DNA from: Sandaracinus amylolyticus
GTDB taxonomy: Bacteria > Myxococcota_A > Polyangia > Polyangiales > Sandaracinaceae
Assembly (NCBI RefSeq): GCF_000737325.1
Contig: NZ_CP011125.1
Location: 2,356,001 to 2,420,000, forward strand
Direction of reading: 5' to 3'
Length of the DNA: 64,000 bases
A program made the translations under genes and the position numbers. This document shows positions 2,268 to 22,050 of this stretch, piece after piece (position 1 is the first letter of the stretch; every line of letters starts with the position of its first letter). The notes beneath the pieces are model-generated. The model had not been told where the DNA came from. It saw nothing but the letters and a program-made list of their open reading frames with translations, and searched no databases.

Positions 2268-4741
2268 CAGAGCTCTCCTCGGATTCCGATCGACGGGAGG
2301 ATCGGCAATCCCGGCAGATCCCGCGACTCGGAATAGTCGTAGTTGTAGATGCGCCCTTCGGGGTTCGTGCTGTTGTAGACGTTCTGCACGTCGATGTAGA
2401 ACGTCAGCGACACGTCCCCGATCCTCCAGAGCTTCTGGAGCCGCACGTCGAGGCGATGGAAGAACGGATTCCGATCCGAATTCACCGCGCCGTAGATCGG
2501 GCGATAGGTGCTCGTTCGCACGTCCTGGATCGCGCCGCCGATCGGCGTGTACGGATTGCCGCTCACGAGCCGGAACGTGCCGCCGAGCTCCCAGCCCTGT
2601 CCGATGCGCCACACGAGCGCGAGCGTGAGGATGTGCGTCTGATCGAAGTCGAACAGGCGCCATTCCTGGCCCGGCCCGTCCTGTCGCTCGCTGCGCGAGA
2701 GCGTGTACGAGAGGAACCCGAAGAGCGGATAGGGCCCATCGGGCTCCATGCGCGCCGCGACCTCGAGGCCGTAGATGCGCCCCAGTCCGTCGTTCGTGAA
2801 GAACGGCGCGACGCCGCGCGGCGTCGCGACCACACGATCCCAGAGGTGCTTGTAGAAGCCGTCGAGGGAGAACGACATCCCGTGCTCCGGGAGCCGCAGA
2901 TCACCGCCGAGCCCGACGTGCAGCGCGTGGATCGGCTCGAGGTCCGGATTGCCGAGATCCTCCACGCTCTCCTGGAATTCGGGCGGCTGCGAGAAGAGGC
3001 CGACGCCGGTGCGCAGCGCGATCTGATCGGTGAGGCGCACGCGCGCGGTCATGCGCGGATCGACCGTGAGCTCCTCGATCTCGCGGTAGTAGTCGGCGCG
3101 CACGCCGAGCACGAGATCGAGCCGCTCGAACAGCGTCACGTCGGTCTCGACGTACGCCGCCGGGCGATAGGCGACCACGTCGTCGATCGCGAAGTCGATG
3201 CGCTCGTCGGTCGGCATCGCGGGCATGCCCTCCGACTGGGCGGTCGGCGGGCCGCGGAACAGCAGGCTCAGCGGCGTGATCTGCATGTCCATGCCGACGA
3301 TCGTCCGCACGCTCGGCGAGAGCTGCATGCGCCACTCGCTGCGGATGTTCAGCGGCAAGAACTCGCCGTCGAGCTGGAACGCGTCGCCCACGCCGAGCTC
3401 CAGCAGGTTGACCCCGAAGCCGACCTGCACGTCCTGCTCGAGCCAGCCCTCGACGTGCCGCCATCCGATCTGGATGCGATGGAATTGCGTCGAGATGCCG
3501 AGATTGCCGCGCACCGCGAAGTCGCCGTCCGACGGATTCGCGAGCAAGAGGCGGAGCTCGTCGCTGCTGCCGTAGATCGCGAGTCGGATTCGATCGGCGT
3601 CGGTGGGAGTCCAGGTCGCGAGCGCTTGATAGTCGTAATAGACGGGCGCAGTGAGGAAGTCCGGCGCGTCGTCTCCGAGGCTGTCCTGAGCGAGCGCGAG
3701 GACCGCGTCGATGTAGCTGCGCCGGAACGCCAGCGCGAACGCGAAGTCCTCGTCGATCGGGCCCTCGAGCATGATCGACGCGTCGATGCCGCCGCTGAGA
3801 TCGATGAACCCGTGGAATCCGTCGAAGCGCGGATCGCGCGGATCGACCTCGAGGATGCCGCCGATCTTGCGCCCGTATCGCACCGAGAAATTGCCGGGGA
3901 CGAACTCGATGCGCTGAAGGAGCTGCGAATTGAAGAACGAGGTCAGTCCGCCGAAGTGATAGAGGAGCGGGACCGGATTGCCGTCGAGGAACACCTGGCT
4001 GTCACCGGGCGCCGATCCGCGCACCAGCAGGACGCCGCCGCCGAACGCAGGGCGCCCGACGCCCGGGAGCAGCTCGACGACCCGCAGCGCGTCGCCGCGC
4101 GTGCCCGGCATGCGCGTGAGCACTTCGCGGCGCAGCACACGCCGCACGGCGTCGCGTGGCGAGGGCTCGACCTCGGCGCGCGCGCGGAACACGGGCTCCG
4201 GGTCCTCCGGCGCGTCGGCCTCGGTCTCGCTCTCGGCCTCGGCCGCGCTCTCGCCTTCGGCCTCGGTCTCGGTCTCGGTCTCGGTCTCGGCCTCGGCGTC
4301 GCCCTCCGCGGCGGGCTCGATCTGCTCCTCGACGACGCGCGCCTCGAACACGTAGCGATATCGGATGCGCGCCCCGATCGCGCGCTCACCCACTCGCGCC
4401 GGCTCGAATACGAACACGCGCGCCGCGGTCATGGCGCGCTCGTCGAACGCCTCGAGGCCTTCGCCCGCGCCCTCGACGACGCGCACGTCGGACACCGTGC
4501 CTTCCGCCGTGACGGTGATCTCCAAGAGGACCGCGGCGTCGCGATCCTCGAGCCCCTCGGGCGGATCGCTCGGAACGAATTGCGTGAGCCGCGGTGGGCT
4601 CGGTCGGGCTGGCGCGTCGTCCGCCGGCGCGTCCTGCGCTTTCACGTGCGCTGCGTTCGCGACGACCACGGCCAGCGCGAACAGCAGCGACGCGAGCCAC
4701 CCGCGAGGTCTCCCACACACGGCTCGGCACTTTGGGCCCAT
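2267..4741 (-). CDS. TonB C-terminal domain fused to TonB-dependent outer-membrane receptor
   Basis: 824 aa with start ATG at 4741, chosen because it begins a signal peptide (hydrophobic residues 15-33, cleavage near KAQD). Residues about 50-135 match a TonB C-terminal fold (the VLLEITVTAEGTVSDV strand and the FEPARVGERAIGARIRYRY end). Then comes an acidic linker (about 140-182) dominated by Glu-Thr and Glu-Ala repeats, a plug domain with VLLVRGSAPGDSQVFLDGNP (about 190-310), and a beta-barrel to the C-terminus with alternating aromatic strands. Receptors of this family take up scarce ligands across the outer membrane using energy passed by TonB. An N-terminal TonB_C copy in the periplasm could contact or replace a transducer. 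It is followed by a coupled lipoprotein gene. Ligand unknown. Confidence 0.85.
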   Translation of the reverse strand: MGPKCRAVCGRPRGWLASLLFALAVVVANAAHVKAQDAPADDAPARPSPPRLTQFVPSDPPEGLEDRDAAVLLEITVTAEGTVSDVRVVEGAGEGLEAFDERAMTAARVFVFEPARVGERAIGARIRYRYVFEARVVEEQIEPAAEGDAEAETETETETEAEGESAAEAESETEADAPEDPEPVFRARAEVEPSPRDAVRRVLRREVLTRMPGTRGDALRVVELLPGVGRPAFGGGVLLVRGSAPGDSQVFLDGNPVPLLYHFGGLTSFFNSQLLQRIEFVPGNFSVRYGRKIGGILEVDPRDPRFDGFHGFIDLSGGIDASIMLEGPIDEDFAFALAFRRSYIDAVLALAQDSLGDDAPDFLTAPVYYDYQALATWTPTDADRIRLAIYGSSDELRLLLANPSDGDFAVRGNLGISTQFHRIQIGWRHVEGWLEQDVQVGFGVNLLELGVGDAFQLDGEFLPLNIRSEWRMQLSPSVRTIVGMDMQITPLSLLFRGPPTAQSEGMPAMPTDERIDFAIDDVVAYRPAAYVETDVTLFERLDLVLGVRADYYREIEELTVDPRMTARVRLTDQIALRTGVGLFSQPPEFQESVEDLGNPDLEPIHALHVGLGGDLRLPEHGMSFSLDGFYKHLWDRVVATPRGVAPFFTNDGLGRIYGLEVAARMEPDGPYPLFGFLSYTLSRSERQDGPGQEWRLFDFDQTHILTLALVWRIGQGWELGGTFRLVSGNPYTPIGGAIQDVRTSTYRPIYGAVNSDRNPFFHRLDVRLQKLWRIGDVSLTFYIDVQNVYNSTNPEGRIYNYDYSESRDLPGLPILPSIGIRGEL
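4219..4302. repeat. Hexanucleotide repeat coding for a Glu/Thr/Ala linker
   Basis: Imperfect six-base tandem repeats of the form TCGGTC or TCGGCC on the plus strand encode the acidic Glu-Thr/Glu-Ala linker between the TonB_C and plug domains of the receptor fusion. The unit is a multiple of three, so unit gain or loss would change linker length without a frameshift. Confidence 0.7.
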
Positions 4742-4804
4742 CGCGCGATTTCGTAAAGAGCGTAGGGCTTGCGCCCGGGGCCCCGCGCCCGAGACTCTCG
4801 AGCC

Positions 4805-6163
4805 ATGCAGCAGCGCGAGCGACAGGGGTCGGTCGACACGACGGTCGGATACGAAGTGCCGCGCGCGAGCGATCGCCCACCGCTCGCGCTCGGCGAGACC
4901 GCCGCCGACGCGAGCCTCCCCGGCGCGCTGCACGCGACGGTCGCGCTCGGCGAGACGCTCGCCGCGCCGCTCCCGGAGGTCGCCGAGGGGGCGAGCGCGC
5001 CGCGCGTCACGTCGACGTCCACGTCGGTGCTGCCGCGCGTCGAGGCGGAAGGGAAGGGCGTGCGCCTCGTGCCCACGAGCGGTCCGCGATATCGCACCGT
5101 GCGCTCGCTCGGCGAGGGCGGGATGGGCGAGGTCGCGCTCGTCGAGGATCGCGACATCGGTCGCAACGTCGCGATGAAGCGCCTGCGCGCGACGTTCGGT
5201 CAGGGGCCCGCGGTGGTCGCGCGCTTCGTCGACGAGGTGCGCACGATCGGCAACCTCGAGCACCCGAACATCGTGCCGATCCACGACGTCGGGGTCGACG
5301 AGAGCGGTCGCTACTTCTTCGTGATGAAGTACGTCGACGGCGAGACGCTCGAGTCGATCGTCACGCGCTTGCAGGCCGGCGATCCGCGCGCGATCGCCGA
5401 TCACGGCATCACGCGCCGCGTCGAGATCTTCGTCGGCTTGCTGCGCGCGCTGCAGTACGCGCACGCGCGCGGCGTCGTGCACCGCGACGTGAAGCCCGCG
5501 AACGTCATGATCGGCCGCTACGGCGAGGTCGTGCTGATGGACTGGGGTGTGGCGCGGCCCATCGCGAAGGTCGGCGCGCACGACGACGCGCAGCGCATGA
5601 GCCCCGACGAGATGCGCGCGACGCCCTCGCGCGCGAGCGAGACCCACGCGGGCGCGCTGATCGGGACGCCGCTCTACATGTCGCCGGAGCAGGCCGCGGG
5701 GAAGAACGACGAGCTCGACGCGCGCAGCGATCTGTACTCGGCGTGCCTCGTGTTCCACGAGCTGCTCGGCCTGCGTCACTACCGCAGCAGCACGAGCGGC
5801 TCGCTGGGCGAGCTGCTCGAGGCCATCCGCGCGCAGGAGCCGGAGAACGTCCACACGATGTTCCCCGCCCATCCCGCGAACCCGCAGGGCATCCCTGCGG
5901 AGCTCGCGCACTTCTGCCGCCGCGGGCTCGCGCGTGATCCCGCCGCGCGATGGCAGAGCGCGGAGGAGATGATCGCGGAGCTCGAGGCGATCCTCGAGGG
6001 ACGCTGTCGCGTGCAGTGCCCGGTGACGTTCATGAAGCGGTCGACGCGCGAGATGGGCCTCTTCGTCGATCGACGCCCGCGCTTCGCGATGGGCGCTGCG
6101 ATCGTCACCGCCCTCGTCGTGCTCGGGCTAATCGCGAACGCGCTGCGTGATCTGATCCTCTGA
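4805..6163 (+). CDS. Hanks-type serine/threonine protein kinase with C-terminal membrane anchor
   Basis: 452 aa. Start ATG at 4805 is preferred over a TTG 36 nt upstream. Residues 1-94 are a low-complexity region. The kinase domain spans about 95-385: glycine loop LGEGGMGEV, catalytic Lys in VAMKRL (K125), HRDVKPAN loop (H226-D228), and the activation segment opens with DWG (246-248) instead of DFG, as in one bacterial PknB-like subgroup. MSPEQ stands for the usual APE motif. A single transmembrane helix (about 428-446) lies at the very C-terminus with only a few residues outside, so unlike PASTA kinases it has no extracellular sensor. The gene is divergent from the TonB_C/receptor gene with 63 bp between them. 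Substrates unknown. Confidence 0.9.
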   Translation: MQQRERQGSVDTTVGYEVPRASDRPPLALGETAADASLPGALHATVALGETLAAPLPEVAEGASAPRVTSTSTSVLPRVEAEGKGVRLVPTSGPRYRTVRSLGEGGMGEVALVEDRDIGRNVAMKRLRATFGQGPAVVARFVDEVRTIGNLEHPNIVPIHDVGVDESGRYFFVMKYVDGETLESIVTRLQAGDPRAIADHGITRRVEIFVGLLRALQYAHARGVVHRDVKPANVMIGRYGEVVLMDWGVARPIAKVGAHDDAQRMSPDEMRATPSRASETHAGALIGTPLYMSPEQAAGKNDELDARSDLYSACLVFHELLGLRHYRSSTSGSLGELLEAIRAQEPENVHTMFPAHPANPQGIPAELAHFCRRGLARDPAARWQSAEEMIAELEAILEGRCRVQCPVTFMKRSTREMGLFVDRRPRFAMGAAIVTALVVLGLIANALRDLIL

Positions 6164-6432
6164 TCGCTGTCGCGCGCGCCGCGCTCGTGAGGCGCGCTCG
6201 TCACCGAAACGATCCATCGCCGTCGACCCCGGGGACGATCTCGGTTCGGTGCGAGGCCACGCCGAACGGGCGGGTCTCGCGCGGCCGCGCTCGCTCGGAT
6301 CGGGCCGCTCCGACACACGCTGCGCCTCTTGCGACGCAGGGGACACGCGATGCCACTCGCGCGTCACACGTCCGCCACGGACGCCTGCGACAACGCGCCG
6401 CGTCCGGAGGGGTTCGCCACCGGAGGAGACGA

Positions 6433-7233
6433 ATGCTCGACGACTTCGGCAAGAGCGGTTCCGGAGGGCGCGGTCGGTTCGGCCTCTCGCTGGGCGCGTC
6501 CGTGCTCGTGTTCGGAGCGATCAGCGGCGCGGTCGTCGCGGCCAGCGCGATGGTGCGTCAGGTCGTGGTCGAAGAGGAGCTCGTGCAGGTGGAGTTCGCA
6601 CCACCGCCCGAGCCCGCTCCCGAGCCGCCGCCGCCACCGCCGCCTCCCCCGGTCGAGGTCGCGACGCCTCCGCCGCCCGACGCAGCGCCGGCGCGCCTGG
6701 GTCGTCCGCGACCCGAGCTCCAGCAGCCCGACGAGATCCCCGACGAGCGCCCCGAGGAATCGGATGCGCCCCTCGCGCCGCCCGACGATCCGTTCGGACC
6801 GGAGCAAGAAGGCGACCCCAACGGCACGCCGGATGGTGTGATCGGCGGTGTTCCCGGCGGCACCGGCACGGCGGTCGTCGCGGAGCCCACGCCCGCTCCG
6901 GCGCCCCAGCCCGCGCGCCCGCGCGGCCCGCAGCGCGTGATCGAGGGCTCGACGCCGCCGCAGGTCGATCGCGAGGAGATCGCGCGCAACTTCGACATCC
7001 CCAGCGAGGTCCGCACCGCGGGCATCGCGCGGATCACGGTGGTCGTGCGCGTGACGGTCGCGGAGGACGGACGCGTGATGCGCGTCGACGTGCTGCGCGG
7101 ACACCCGCTGATCCCGAACGAGAACATCGTGCGCGCGGTCGAGCGCAGCAGCTTCCAGCCTGCTCGCCTCGCGGACGGATCTGCTTACTCCGCGATTCAC
7201 ACGCTCCCGATCACCATCGCAGTCACGCTCTGA
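6433..7233 (+). CDS. tonB: TonB-type energy transducer
   Basis: 266 aa. ATG at 6433 sits behind a strong GGAGGAG ribosome-binding site (6422-6428), and the product then has the expected layout: short cytoplasmic tail, one membrane anchor (about 14-36), a Pro-rich periplasmic spacer (about 55-160, with runs of Pro and Glu-Pro) and a TonB C-terminal domain (about 175-266, ending FQPARLADGSAY then two beta strands). TonB spans the periplasm and transmits proton-motive force from ExbB/ExbD to outer-membrane receptors. It is the first gene of a tonB-exbB-exbD-exbD-receptor cluster, 48 bp before exbB. The 269 bp between the upstream kinase and this gene hold no gene I can support. Confidence 0.9.
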   Translation: MLDDFGKSGSGGRGRFGLSLGASVLVFGAISGAVVAASAMVRQVVVEEELVQVEFAPPPEPAPEPPPPPPPPPVEVATPPPPDAAPARLGRPRPELQQPDEIPDERPEESDAPLAPPDDPFGPEQEGDPNGTPDGVIGGVPGGTGTAVVAEPTPAPAPQPARPRGPQRVIEGSTPPQVDREEIARNFDIPSEVRTAGIARITVVVRVTVAEDGRVMRVDVLRGHPLIPNENIVRAVERSSFQPARLADGSAYSAIHTLPITIAVTL

Positions 7234-16114: not shown

Positions 16115-17941
16115 ATGAGCGCCGCAGTTCCACGTGGAGTCGCGGAGTCGGATCACGCGCCCGCCACGGCTCATCGTTCCTCTCCGATCGCGCAGAAATA
16201 CGAGCTGCTACGCGAGATCGGGCGAGGCGGGATGGGCGTCGTGCACGAGGCGATCAACACGTGGACGCACCGTCGCGTCGCGCTGAAGCTCATGCACCCC
16301 GGACTGCCACGCACGGTCCAGCGGAGGCTCTTCGAAGAGGCACGCACCGCGTCGCGCCTCTCGCATCCGAACGTGGTCGACGTCCTCGACATGGGCGCGG
16401 CGGAGGACGGCTCGCTGTTCCTCGTGCAGGAGCTGCTCGAGGGCGAAGACCTGCACGAGCGGCTCGATCGCGTCGGACGGCTCGCCGCGTCCGAGGTGCT
16501 GAGGGTGTTCCTGCCGGTGATCGACGCGCTCGCGTCCGCCCACGAGCTCGGGATCGTGCACAGGGACGTGAAGCCCTCGAACATCGTGCTCGCGCGCGAC
16601 CCGCGCGGCGTGCTCGTGCCCAAGCTCGTCGACTTCGGCATCGCGAAGCGGGTCGACGACCACGCGTACACGCGCATCACGCTCGACGGAACGCTGCTCG
16701 GCACGCCTCACTACATGGCCCCCGAGCAGATCCTCGACGACGAGGTCGGACCTCCCGCGGACGTGTGGTCGATCGGCGTGTGTCTCTACGAGGCGCTCAC
16801 CGGACGCGTGCCCTACGAGTCCACGCAGCTGCACCTCTTGCTGCGCGAGATCTCGGGGCTGGACGCGACGAGCCCGCGCCTGCTCGTGGGTGTGCACGAC
16901 GCGTTCGCGAGCCCGATCCGCGCTGCGCTCTCGATCGAGCCCGCGCTGCGGCCCACCATGCGCGAGCTCGCGACGATGCTCGCGTCGATCGGCGACGCCG
17001 ACGACGTGCGCACGGTTCCGCCGCCCGCGGGCTACCACTCGCTCGACGAGCTCGACGACGACGACGATTCCGACCCCACGGTCGTCGAGCTCCAGCGCGT
17101 CAGCGTCCCGAGCGTGCAGCGCGTCACGATCGACGAGAGCGGGCCCATGCGCGCGGCGCTGCGCATCGGGATCGTGAACGACGCGCGCGACCTCGACTCG
17201 GTGCAGCTGCGCGACGCGTTCCGATCCGCGCTCGATCGGGCATGCGAGATCACGCGCTTCCGCAGCTACGCAGAGCTCGTCGACTCGGTGGGCGAGGGCG
17301 ACGTCGATCTCGCGTGGCTGCCGCCGGTCGCCTACGTGCGCGCGGCGCGGCTCGGCGCGGTGCGCATGGTGGTCGCGGTCGAGCGCGACGGCCGCGCGCA
17401 GTACGCGTCCGCGCTGCTCGGTCGGCGCGGCGCCGTGTCGTCGTACGCCGACGTCGCGGGCCGCCGCGCGGTGTGGGTCGACAACTGGTCGGCCGCTGGA
17501 TACCTCGTGCCGCGCGCGCTGCTGTGCGAGCACGGGATCGATCCCGATCTGGCGCTGCGATCGCAGGGATTCGTGGGCTCCTACGAGGCGGTGCTCGATG
17601 CGCTCGCGGCGGGCACTGCCGACGTCGGTGCCGCGTTCTGCACGGTCGGCGCGGACGGCGAGATCGTCCGTCGACCCTGGTCCGAGGCGCACGGTGTGAG
17701 CGTCATCGACGTCAGCGCACCGATCCCCGGCGACACGTTCTGCGCGTCGGCGCTGCTGCCCGAGGACGTCGCGCGCGAGGTGCTCGCGTCGCTCTGCGAC
17801 GAGGTCGCGACGGCGCCGCTCGTGAAGCTCGTGGGCGCCGCGCGTCTCGCGCCCGGGATTCCCGAGCGCTATCGCGGGCTCGAGCGTGCGCTTCTCGTCG
17901 GTCGATCGGAGCCTGGTGTCGCGGCCGTGGAGCACGAGTGA
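16115..17941 (+). CDS. Ser/Thr kinase fused to a PhnD-like periplasmic-binding domain
   Basis: 608 aa. Kinase domain at about 29-295: IGRGGMGVV, K58 in VALKLM, HRDVKPSN (149-156), DFG (173-175), MAPEQ, all intact. A linker with an Asp run (about 309-325) leads to a second domain (about 346-590) resembling phosphonate/phosphate-type ABC solute-binding proteins (PhnD-like, PF12974): RIGIVNDARDL, GDVDLAWLPPVAYV, WVDNWSAAGYLVPRALL, GSYEAVLDALAAGTADVGAA. There is no signal peptide and no hydrophobic segment, so both domains should be cytoplasmic; the binding-protein fold may act as a ligand sensor for the kinase. Neighbours do not include a phosphonate transporter. It begins 174 bp from the divergent hydrolase. 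Confidence 0.82.
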   Translation: MSAAVPRGVAESDHAPATAHRSSPIAQKYELLREIGRGGMGVVHEAINTWTHRRVALKLMHPGLPRTVQRRLFEEARTASRLSHPNVVDVLDMGAAEDGSLFLVQELLEGEDLHERLDRVGRLAASEVLRVFLPVIDALASAHELGIVHRDVKPSNIVLARDPRGVLVPKLVDFGIAKRVDDHAYTRITLDGTLLGTPHYMAPEQILDDEVGPPADVWSIGVCLYEALTGRVPYESTQLHLLLREISGLDATSPRLLVGVHDAFASPIRAALSIEPALRPTMRELATMLASIGDADDVRTVPPPAGYHSLDELDDDDDSDPTVVELQRVSVPSVQRVTIDESGPMRAALRIGIVNDARDLDSVQLRDAFRSALDRACEITRFRSYAELVDSVGEGDVDLAWLPPVAYVRAARLGAVRMVVAVERDGRAQYASALLGRRGAVSSYADVAGRRAVWVDNWSAAGYLVPRALLCEHGIDPDLALRSQGFVGSYEAVLDALAAGTADVGAAFCTVGADGEIVRRPWSEAHGVSVIDVSAPIPGDTFCASALLPEDVAREVLASLCDEVATAPLVKLVGAARLAPGIPERYRGLERALLVGRSEPGVAAVEHE

Positions 17942-19739: not shown

Positions 19740-21152
19740 TCAGGCGTCGAGCGCCGCCGAGTCGTCGTCGTGCGCGCTCGCGTCGCGCCCGAGCTCGGCG
19801 CGCGCGAGCCGCACCGAGAACGTCGTGCCGTGCCCGAGGCGGCTCTCGACCGAGACCTCGCCGCCCATGCGCTGCGTCAGGTGCTTCACGATCGCGAGCC
19901 CGAGGCCCGTGCCGCCCTGCTCGCGCGAGCGCCCCTGATCGACGCGATAGAAGCGCTCGAAGATGCGCGAGAGGTGCGACGCCGCGATGCCCGGGCCGCT
20001 GTCGACGACCTCGACGCGCGCGGTGTCCGCGTCCTTGCGGAAGCGCACCACCACGCGCCCGCCCGAGGGCGTGTACTTGATCCCGTTGTCGACGAGGTTG
20101 AGCAGCACCTGATCGAGCGCGCGCTCGTCACCGCTCACCGGCACCGCGTCGTGCGTCGCCTCGATCCCGAGCTGCACGCCCTTGTCGCTCGCCTTCTGCT
20201 CGAGCGACGAGAGCACCTTGCTCGCGATCGCGAGCGGATCGATCGGCTCGAGCTCGAAGCGCGCGTCGGGCGACTCGGAGCGCGAGAGCTCGAGGAGGTC
20301 GTCGACGATGCGCTGCAGGCGGATCGCGTTCTCGACGATGTTGCTCACGAAGCGCTTCGCGATGCGCGGCTCGTCGAGCGCTCCGTCGCGCAGCGTTTCC
20401 GCGAACCCACGGATCGCGGTGAGCGGCGTGCGCAGCTCGTGGCTGGCGTTCGCGACGAAATCCCGCCGCACCTCGTCGAGACGCCGCACCTCGGTCACGT
20501 CGCGCATCACGACGATCGCGCCGGCGCCGTCGGGGAGCGGCGCGACGTGCGCCGAGATGATCTTCACGTCGAGCCGGAAGACGGCCTTGCTGCGCTCGCC
20601 GCGCAGCGCCTTCGACACGGCTTCGTGCAGCTCCGCGCTCCGGATCGCCTCGATGCACGCGCGCCCGAGCCCCGCGCTGCCGGACAGGCCGACGAACGCG
20701 GCGTTGCTGAGCACGACGAGGCCGTCGGCATCGGTGACGAGCACCGCCTCGTCCATCGCGTCGAGCATCACGCGCAGGCGCGACTCCTCGGCGCGCACGG
20801 CCTCGAGGCGCTCCGCGAGCTGATCGGCCATGCGATCGATCGCGCGCCCGATGCCGCCGATCTCGTCGTCGCGGCGCGAGCGCACGCGCACCGCGAAGTC
20901 GCCGCGCGCGAGCGCGTCGGACGCGTGACGCAGCTCGGCGATCGGCGTCACGAAGCGTCGCGCGATCAGCTCCGCGAGCACGACCGCCACGATCGCGGCG
21001 AGCACGCTCGCGAACACGAGCACGTCGCGCATCGCGCTTCGTGTCGCCGCGTCGGCTGCGACGTTCTCCGCATAGATCCAGCTCGCGCCGACGACGAGCA
21101 CCGCGCCTGCGAGCGTCGCGATCAGCAGGCGTGCGCGGATGCTGTGGAGCAC
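19740..21152 (-). CDS. phoR: PhoR-like sensor histidine kinase
   Basis: 470 aa. Two transmembrane helices (about 7-26 and 43-63) with a very short periplasmic loop, HAMP (about 62-115), PAS (about 125-222), HisKA with phospho-accepting H238 (ASHELRTPL), and HATPase with DNGIKYTP, DSGPGIA and GTGLGLAI. Order and size match PhoR, which autophosphorylates and passes phosphate to PhoB; a near-absent periplasmic sensor also fits PhoR, which reads the Pst/PhoU state. Here pstSCAB and phoU are not in the window, so the phosphate role is inferred only from the architecture and the partner. Follows the regulator by 42 bp. Confidence 0.88.
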   Translation of the reverse strand: MLHSIRARLLIATLAGAVLVVGASWIYAENVAADAATRSAMRDVLVFASVLAAIVAVVLAELIARRFVTPIAELRHASDALARGDFAVRVRSRRDDEIGGIGRAIDRMADQLAERLEAVRAEESRLRVMLDAMDEAVLVTDADGLVVLSNAAFVGLSGSAGLGRACIEAIRSAELHEAVSKALRGERSKAVFRLDVKIISAHVAPLPDGAGAIVVMRDVTEVRRLDEVRRDFVANASHELRTPLTAIRGFAETLRDGALDEPRIAKRFVSNIVENAIRLQRIVDDLLELSRSESPDARFELEPIDPLAIASKVLSSLEQKASDKGVQLGIEATHDAVPVSGDERALDQVLLNLVDNGIKYTPSGGRVVVRFRKDADTARVEVVDSGPGIAASHLSRIFERFYRVDQGRSREQGGTGLGLAIVKHLTQRMGGEVSVESRLGHGTTFSVRLARAELGRDASAHDDDSAALDA

Positions 21153-21194: not shown

Positions 21195-21884
21195 TCAGTC
21201 TGCCCGGAGACGATAGCCGACGCCGCGCACGGTCTCGATGTAGTCGCGCGCCGCACCGAGCTTCTCGCGGAGCCGCTTGACGTGCGTGTCGACGGTGCGC
21301 GTCTCGATCCCCGGCGCGTAGCCCCAGACGCGCTCGAGCAGCGCGTCGCGCGTCTGTACGCGACCGGGACGGCTCGCGAGATCGTAGAGGAGCTTGAACT
21401 CCAGCGCGGTGAGCGGGATGTCCTCGTTCTCCACGACCACGCGATGCTGCGGGACGTCGATCTCGAGCAGGCCGATCAGGATGCGCTCCGTCGGCGTCGC
21501 CGCGGTCGGCGTCACCGCGCGTCGGAGCACCGCGCCGATGCGCAGCACCAGCTCGCGCGGGCTGAACGGCTTGACGATGTAGTCGTCGGCCCCGAGCTCG
21601 AAGCCGACCACCCGATCGATCTCCTCGCCGCGCGCGGTGATCATCATGATCGGGATCGACGAGGTACCCGCGTCACGGCGCAGCCTGCGACAGACCTCGG
21701 TCCCCGCCACGTCGGGCAGGTTGAGGTCGAGCAGGATGAGATCGGGCCGTTGTCGCCGGATCTCGGCCAGCGCCGTGTTGCCGTCACGCGCGGTGACGAC
21801 CGTGTACCCACTCTGGCGGAGGTTGTACTCGAGCAGCTCGACGATGTCCGCTTCGTCGTCGACCAGCAGGATCCGCTCGCGCAT
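21195..21884 (-). CDS. phoB: OmpR/PhoB-family response regulator
   Basis: 229 aa from ATG at 21884; an upstream frame extension has no receiver sequence. The receiver domain (1-120) has acidic pocket D9-D10, phospho-acceptor D53, T-A of MMITARG and K of YIVKPFSP. The C-terminal winged helix (about 130-225) ends VDTHVKRLREKLGAARDYIETVRGVGYR (written here in part), typical of PhoB. It precedes the histidine kinase gene on the same strand, so the two form an operon. The intergenic space to ychF (21885-22050) holds the promoters of both; I see no clear Pho box. Confidence 0.9.
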   Translation of the reverse strand: MRERILLVDDEADIVELLEYNLRQSGYTVVTARDGNTALAEIRRQRPDLILLDLNLPDVAGTEVCRRLRRDAGTSSIPIMMITARGEEIDRVVGFELGADDYIVKPFSPRELVLRIGAVLRRAVTPTAATPTERILIGLLEIDVPQHRVVVENEDIPLTALEFKLLYDLASRPGRVQTRDALLERVWGYAPGIETRTVDTHVKRLREKLGAARDYIETVRGVGYRLRAD

Positions 21885-22050
21885 TCCGGGTGCCGACACT
21901 GACGGAGGAGCGTAGCAGCCATGTGACGAGCACGTGGCCGGAGCGAAAGGGATTCGCCCGCCGGTGACAACGGCACCCACCTAGCCGAAAAAGCAGGGTC
22001 TTTGCGAAGGTCCGAGGGGCGCGCTACGTGTCGGCCCCCTCGGAGGTCCC

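What the first reader, a model, noticed from the sequence alone, without database searches (positions are those of the whole stretch)
16115..17941. Cytoplasmic Ser/Thr kinase fused to a PhnD-like solute-binding domain
A complete Hanks kinase (K58, HRD 149-151, DFG 173-175) is followed in one frame by a domain that looks like a phosphonate/phosphate ABC binding protein, yet there is no signal peptide or membrane helix. A binding-protein fold used as an intracellular ligand sensor for a kinase would be an unusual signalling design.
Basis: partly seen in the sequence, partly recalled or inferred. Interest (0 to 1): 0.72.

Follow-up and report, generated by a model that had tools for sequence, protein, structure and literature searches.

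The report
Cytosolic kinase with PhnD-like sensor domain
A soil-bacterium (myxobacterial-type) protein really does join a complete Ser/Thr kinase to a small-molecule-binding domain that normally sits outside the cell membrane, and it belongs to a conserved family in which that binding domain has moved inside the cell, probably to let the kinase sense a still unknown metabolite.

Summary
Confirmed and extended. Window 16115-17941 is one intact 608-aa gene: a Hanks kinase with all catalytic residues, a ~60-aa linker, and a PF12974 (PhnD/PtxB-type) domain, with no signal peptide and no TM helix. It is not a frameshift or misassembly: a same-genus genome has a 90%-identical ortholog of the same layout, both domains are under purifying selection, and the own genome has a second such gene (42% identical). 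In 184 genomes of the order, one-frame cytosolic fusions occur in 12; none appeared in the rest of a ~360-380-genome phylum sample at E<=1e-65. The binding domains lie in a 65-member, well-supported (100/98) clade of signal-less PhnD-like proteins, mostly standalone; signal- or TM-bearing PhnD domains, including a separate kinase-TM-PhnD family, fall outside it. The pocket is conserved but altered (STSG to SAAG, His157 to Tyr). The genome has no PhnE, PhnC or PhnJ above cut-off, and all five of its strong PF12974 proteins lack signals, so transport is unlikely. Best explanation: a soluble kinase gated by an intracellular ligand; ligand and gating are unproven. Some family members are pseudokinases. 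The classical phosphonate reading is weakened.

The parts
16115..17941 (+). whole gene, 608 aa, kinase-linker-PhnD-like domain, no signal peptide, no TM helix
16199..16969 (+). Hanks-type Ser/Thr kinase domain, residues 29-285
   Evidence: PF00069 E 3.5e-46; catalytic residues all present
16286..16288 (+). K58, ATP-anchoring lysine
16559..16582 (+). catalytic loop HRDVKPSN, residues 149-156
16631..16639 (+). DFG, residues 173-175
16970..17149 (+). acidic, fast-evolving linker, about residues 286-345 (dN/dS 0.46)
17150..17914 (+). PhnD/PtxB-type (PF12974) domain, about residues 346-600
   Evidence: PF12974 E 6.4e-34; PtxB 5o2j E 2.5e-15; family profile to PtxB 5lv1 E 7.2e-31
17486..17503 (+). 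WSAAGY, residues 458-463: pocket turn that replaces the canonical xSTSGY anion-binding turn

Best explanation
The gene encodes a soluble, probably catalytically competent Ser/Thr kinase whose C-terminal PhnD-derived domain acts as an intracellular ligand sensor. Likely course: the two lobes of the PhnD-like domain close on a small cytosolic metabolite in the cleft lined by Tyr385, Tyr430, Ser459, Ala460, Ala461, Tyr490 and Asp540, and the closure is passed through the flexible acidic linker to raise or lower kinase activity. Shown: architecture, cytosolic make-up (no signal or TM), conservation and selection on both domains, a conserved but altered pocket, shared ancestry with a clade of signal-less PhnD-like proteins, and no PhnE, PhnC or PhnJ above cut-off in the genome. 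Inferred: that the pocket binds a ligand, that binding gates the kinase, and the direction of the effect. The ligand is unknown; the pocket no longer looks like a classical phosphonate site.
For: Intact one-frame fusion with an ortholog and a paralog of the same layout under purifying selection. Pocket columns are at the 90th-96th percentile of conservation in the main fusion clade (the Ala128/Ala129 columns at 79 and 68); permutation P = 0.0001 for the seven pocket columns other than 177. Catalytic residues complete. Fifteen main-clade cytosolic fusion kinases form one clade (100/97) against 20 other kinases of the own genome, and their PhnD-like domains cluster together, so the two domains have travelled together. 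Domain families point to PtxB, AioX and ArrX, some of which are sensors (PMC5908839). The own genome has five strong PF12974 proteins, all without a signal, and no PhnE, PhnC or PhnJ above cut-off.
Against: No ligand, no activity and no structure is shown; both AlphaFold jobs gave unusable models. Loss of the Thr128 and Ser129 hydroxyls and His157 could mean a weakened or lost site rather than a new specificity. No gene neighbourhood beyond the genus hints at a ligand. Several relatives have lost kinase catalytic residues, so phosphotransfer is not what holds the whole family together.
Confidence: 0.6

Rival explanations
1. The PhnD-like domain is a protein-protein docking or scaffold module that no longer binds a small ligand; it recruits the kinase substrate or a partner, and the kinase part is secondary and in some lineages dead.
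For: Clear loss of catalytic aspartates in L052 (HRD to HGS, K to E) and in L117/L118 (DFG to GFG), and changes in L050, L051, L054, L055 and L056, while the PhnD-like domain stays conserved; none of the 20 other kinases of the own genome nor the 6 TM-type kinases shows such changes, though those 20 were the best hits to the window protein. Two of three anion-holding Ser/Thr residues are gone.
Against: Pocket columns remain among the most conserved of the domain; Ser127 is invariant and Asp205 is Asp or Glu throughout the main fusion clade.
Confidence: 0.2
2. It is a sensor of phosphonate, phosphate or a similar oxyanion brought into the cytosol.
For: Family membership and nearest solved structures are phosphite, phosphonate and arsenic-oxyanion binders. 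Y47, Y93, S127 and D205 of PhnD are retained. A PhoR/PhoB-like pair lies about 1.8 kb downstream in this window.
Against: T128A, S129A and H157Y; no C-P lyase PhnJ, and no PhnE or PhnC over cut-off; the PhoR/PhoB-like pair is not beside the ortholog in the same-genus genome.
Confidence: 0.12
3. The PhnD-like domain is an enzyme, as other cytosolic members of the type-2 PBP fold are (for example MqnA/MqnD or HemC, from own knowledge), and the kinase regulates it.
For: Standalone cytosolic relatives are common. The paralog lies 12 bp upstream of hemE in both genomes of the genus.
Against: No conserved new catalytic-looking residue set was seen in alignment A1; the hemE link is not kept in the relative L053.
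Confidence: 0.08

Closest known systems
PhnD/PtxB periplasmic binding proteins of phosphonate and phosphite ABC transporters (PF12974, TIGR01098, TIGR03431)
   Same: Fold family and several pocket residues (Y47, Y93, S127, D205 of E. coli PhnD)
   Different: No signal peptide, no PhnE or PhnC over cut-off in the genome, STS turn changed to SAA, H157 to Y, below the TIGR01098 and PhnD cut-offs, fused to a kinase
AioX / ArrX / ArxX arsenic-oxyanion sensors (PMC5908839)
   Same: PF12974-type protein used for signalling rather than transport, feeding a kinase
   Different: They are separate periplasmic proteins acting on a membrane histidine kinase; here the domain is cytosolic and covalently joined to a Ser/Thr kinase
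Kinase-TM-PhnD fusions in the same order (L018, L022, L023, L025, L027, L044)
   Same: N-terminal Hanks kinase and C-terminal PF12974 domain
   Different: One TM helix between the domains, canonical S(T/S)SGY pocket, separate clades in both the kinase tree and the PhnD tree
LysR- and LacI-type regulators (own knowledge)
   Same: A periplasmic-binding-protein fold reused inside the cell as a ligand sensor
   Different: They drive DNA binding, and their sensor domains are not PF12974; here the output is a protein kinase
BstB sterol-binding PhnD-like protein (PMC10942540)
   Same: Shows that a PF12974-type protein can take a quite different, hydrophobic ligand
   Different: Belongs to a bacterial sterol-trafficking set (BstABC) in a methanotroph; no kinase is described

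Membership tests
Hanks-type (eukaryote-like) Ser/Thr kinase | Pkinase profile over its cut-off | tested here: met
   158 bits against 31.7
Hanks-type (eukaryote-like) Ser/Thr kinase | Gly loop, Lys, Glu, HRDxKxxN, DFG, APE | tested here: met
   all present
Hanks-type (eukaryote-like) Ser/Thr kinase | kinase activity | not testable with these tools
   needs purified protein
PF12974 Phosphonate-bd superfamily | profile over its cut-off | tested here: met
   117.8 bits against 27
TIGR01098 phosphate/phosphite/phosphonate SBP subfamily | over curated cut-off | tested here: not met
   81 bits (83.7 for the domain alone) against 112
PhnD equivalog TIGR03431 | over curated cut-off | tested here: not met
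   51 bits against 261
ABC-transporter substrate-binding protein | signal peptide, lipobox or TM anchor | tested here: not met
   no hydrophobic segment; ORF opens 2 codons before the ATG
ABC-transporter substrate-binding protein | PhnE/PhnC partner genes | tested here: not met
   one PhnE hit of 30 bits against 216.7; best PhnC-profile hit 182 against 266
PhnD-type phosphonate pocket | Tyr47, Tyr93, Ser127, Thr128, Ser129, His157, Glu177, Asp205 | tested here: not met
   window has Y, Y, S, A, A, Y, T, D; four of eight kept
Transmembrane receptor Ser/Thr kinase | TM helix between kinase and sensor | tested here: not met
   maximum 19-residue mean hydropathy 1.45
AioX/ArrX sensors | periplasmic protein with histidine-kinase and regulator genes (XSR cluster) | tested here: not met
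   cytosolic fusion; the window's nearby two-component pair is not beside the ortholog in the same genus

The most novel reading that the evidence does not exclude
In this order of bacteria a PhnD-type binding protein moved into the cytosol, changed its anion-binding turn (STSG to SAAG/SCAG), spread into a large family of intracellular metabolite receptors, and was fused to Ser/Thr kinases, some of which later became pseudokinases; a new class of intracellular ligand-gated kinase for an unidentified metabolite.
Probability: 0.45. Interest if true: 0.66.

Novelty: new variant of a known kind. Interest (0 to 1): 0.52.

Why it matters
Very few bacterial Ser/Thr kinases have a known activating ligand (own knowledge). 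A soluble, single-chain kinase with a pocket-bearing binding domain can be purified and screened directly, and the many standalone cytosolic relatives offer the same pocket in a small crystallisable form. It would also show how a transport protein can be turned into an intracellular receptor by losing its signal peptide and changing a few pocket residues.

Tried and rejected
Frameshift, gene-fusion artefact or misassembly: rejected by the ortholog, the paralog and dN/dS. Signal peptide missed by a wrong start: rejected, the frame opens two codons upstream. Function from neighbours: the PhoR/PhoB-like pair next door is not beside the ortholog in the same genus; the paralog's hemE neighbour is kept only within the genus; standalone relatives sit beside unrelated genes. 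Two viral-contig scans gave no relatives. PADLOC matched only through the kinase domain. Literature searches for kinase-PhnD fusions found nothing; the library holds only open-licence papers. I first read L117/L118 as an independent second cytosolic fusion because their kinases fall outside the main clade, but their PhnD-like domains fall inside it, so I do not claim it.

Full report
What is there. Window 16115-17941 (+) is one uninterrupted ORF of 608 aa. Pfam finds a protein kinase at residues 29-285 (E 3.5e-46) and a PF12974 Phosphonate-bd domain at residues 365-562 (E 6.4e-34, 117.8 bits, cut-off 27). By sequence the domain matches solved PtxB, PhnD, AioX and ArrX chains (PtxB 5o2j E 2.5e-15; with a profile of the family, PtxB 5lv1 E 7.2e-31). 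K58, E75, HRDVKPSN (149-156), DFG (173-175) and APE are all present. No stretch reaches TM hydrophobicity (maximum 1.45), and the frame opens two codons before the ATG, so the protein is predicted to be cytosolic.

It is not an artefact. In the one-contig 10.33-Mb genome that holds the window, a second gene has the same layout and 42% identity over residues 20-595 (no TM helix). A same-genus genome carries orthologs of both (L041, L042). For the window gene dN/dS is 0.14 in the kinase, 0.20 in the binding domain and 0.46 in the linker; for the paralog 0.14, 0.19 and 0.11. Both domains are therefore under purifying selection.

How widespread it is. Scans of 57 relatives, 184 genomes of the order and samples of 379 and 360 genomes of the phylum gave 16 one-frame cytosolic fusions in 12 genomes (L003, L005, L036, L041, L042, L050, L051, L052, L053, L054, L055, L056, L075, L098, L117, L118; L056 is cut by its contig end), plus one genome (L011/L045) where kinase and binding domain lie in two frames of a MAG contig and a domain cut by a contig end (L107). 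In the phylum sample no genome outside the order had a match at E <= 1e-65. A different kind, kinase-TM-PhnD, occurs in six genomes of the order (L018, L022, L023, L025, L027, L044).

Where the binding domain comes from. In a maximum-likelihood tree of 82 domains, all 17 signal- or TM-bearing domains are on one side of a branch (100/98, 100% of bootstrap trees) and all 65 signal-less ones on the other (signal status by upstream hydropathy). The 18 kinase-fused cytosolic domains cluster within the signal-less side, most of which is standalone proteins of about 250-290 aa whose domain starts at or near the initiator Met. The TM-kinase domains sit apart with the canonical ones. In the kinase tree 15 cytosolic fusions form one clade (100/97) against 20 other kinases of the genome, and the TM kinases another (99/91). 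So the cytosolic and TM fusions arose separately, and the cytosolic one most simply from a PhnD-like protein that was already cytosolic. L117/L118 are unsettled: inside by their binding domain, outside by their degenerate kinase.

The pocket. Using the ligand contacts given for E. coli PhnD and AioX (PMC5908839; the Y47, Y93, S127, S129 and H157 counterparts were set by alignment and by fit to the mature numbering), PhnD Y47, Y93, S127, T128, S129, H157, E177 and D205 correspond to Y385, Y430, S459, A460, A461, Y490, T510 and D540. In the main fusion clade Ser127 is Ser in 16/16, position 128 is Ala in 16/16, 129 is Ala in 15/16, 157 is Tyr in 11/16 and 205 is Asp or Glu in 16/16. Pocket columns other than 177 are more conserved than random columns (P = 0.0001). 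This argues for a maintained binding site with a changed ligand rather than a dead remnant, but it is inference.

Transport is unlikely. The five strong PF12974 loci of this genome are the two fusions and three standalone proteins without a signal peptide; the sixth, weak hit lies in a protein with its own membrane part. No PhnE or PhnC match reaches its cut-off, and PhnJ is absent.

The kinase is not always kept active. Among 17 cytosolic fusion kinases, L052 has lost K, HRD and the catalytic loop, L117/L118 have GFG for DFG (L118 also HRG), L054 has DFA, L050/L051/L055 have Thr for the catalytic-loop Lys, and L056 has Arg there; none of 20 other kinases of the own genome or 6 TM-type kinases shows such changes (the 20 were taken from the best hits, which favours intact ones). 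The window copy and its paralog keep all residues.

Best reading and limits. A soluble Ser/Thr kinase with an intracellular PBP-type sensor is the best-supported explanation (0.6). Ligand binding, gating and its direction are not shown. Rivals are a docking or scaffold domain (0.2), an oxyanion sensor as first proposed (0.12) and an enzyme domain (0.08). Structure prediction failed for want of an admissible alignment.

Noticed in passing
L043:3971-5743 and 5755-6777 (own genome C1 about 3390570-3393376); same in L042: The second kinase-PhnD gene ends 12 bp before hemE, followed by a hemG/hemY-like oxidase gene, in both genomes of the genus; the related L053 is not next to hemE.
   Followed up: partly
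L001, L002, L004, L057, L079, L083, L085, L099, L100 and others: A large, apparently undescribed family of standalone signal-less PhnD-like proteins in this order, with S-A-A-G, S-C-A-G or S-A-S-G in place of S-T-S-G.
   Followed up: partly
L112:5145-5861 with 5933-6979; L113:5125-5814 with 5920-7002: A standalone signal-less PhnD-like gene sits directly upstream of a dnaJ-like gene in two families of the order.
   Followed up: no
L099:3827-5623 (-) and 5797-6573 (+): A standalone cytosolic PhnD-like gene lies divergent to an unfused Ser/Thr kinase gene.
   Followed up: partly
L052:4052-5743; L117:850-2865 and L118:1079-2770 (reverse-complement coordinates): Pseudokinase versions of the fusion: catalytic residues lost while the PhnD-like domain is kept.
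   Followed up: yes
L018, L022, L023, L025, L027, L044: A separate family of kinase-TM-PhnD receptors with a canonical pocket, probably sensing outside the cytoplasm.
   Followed up: partly
L011:3703-5292 and 3813-5705 (same contig as L045): In one MAG the kinase and PhnD-like parts are in different frames; sequencing error or a real split not resolved.
   Followed up: no
window 19740-21152 (-) and 21195-21980 (-): PhoR/PhoB-like histidine kinase and response regulator about 1.8 kb downstream; not beside the kinase ortholog in the same-genus genome.
   Followed up: yes
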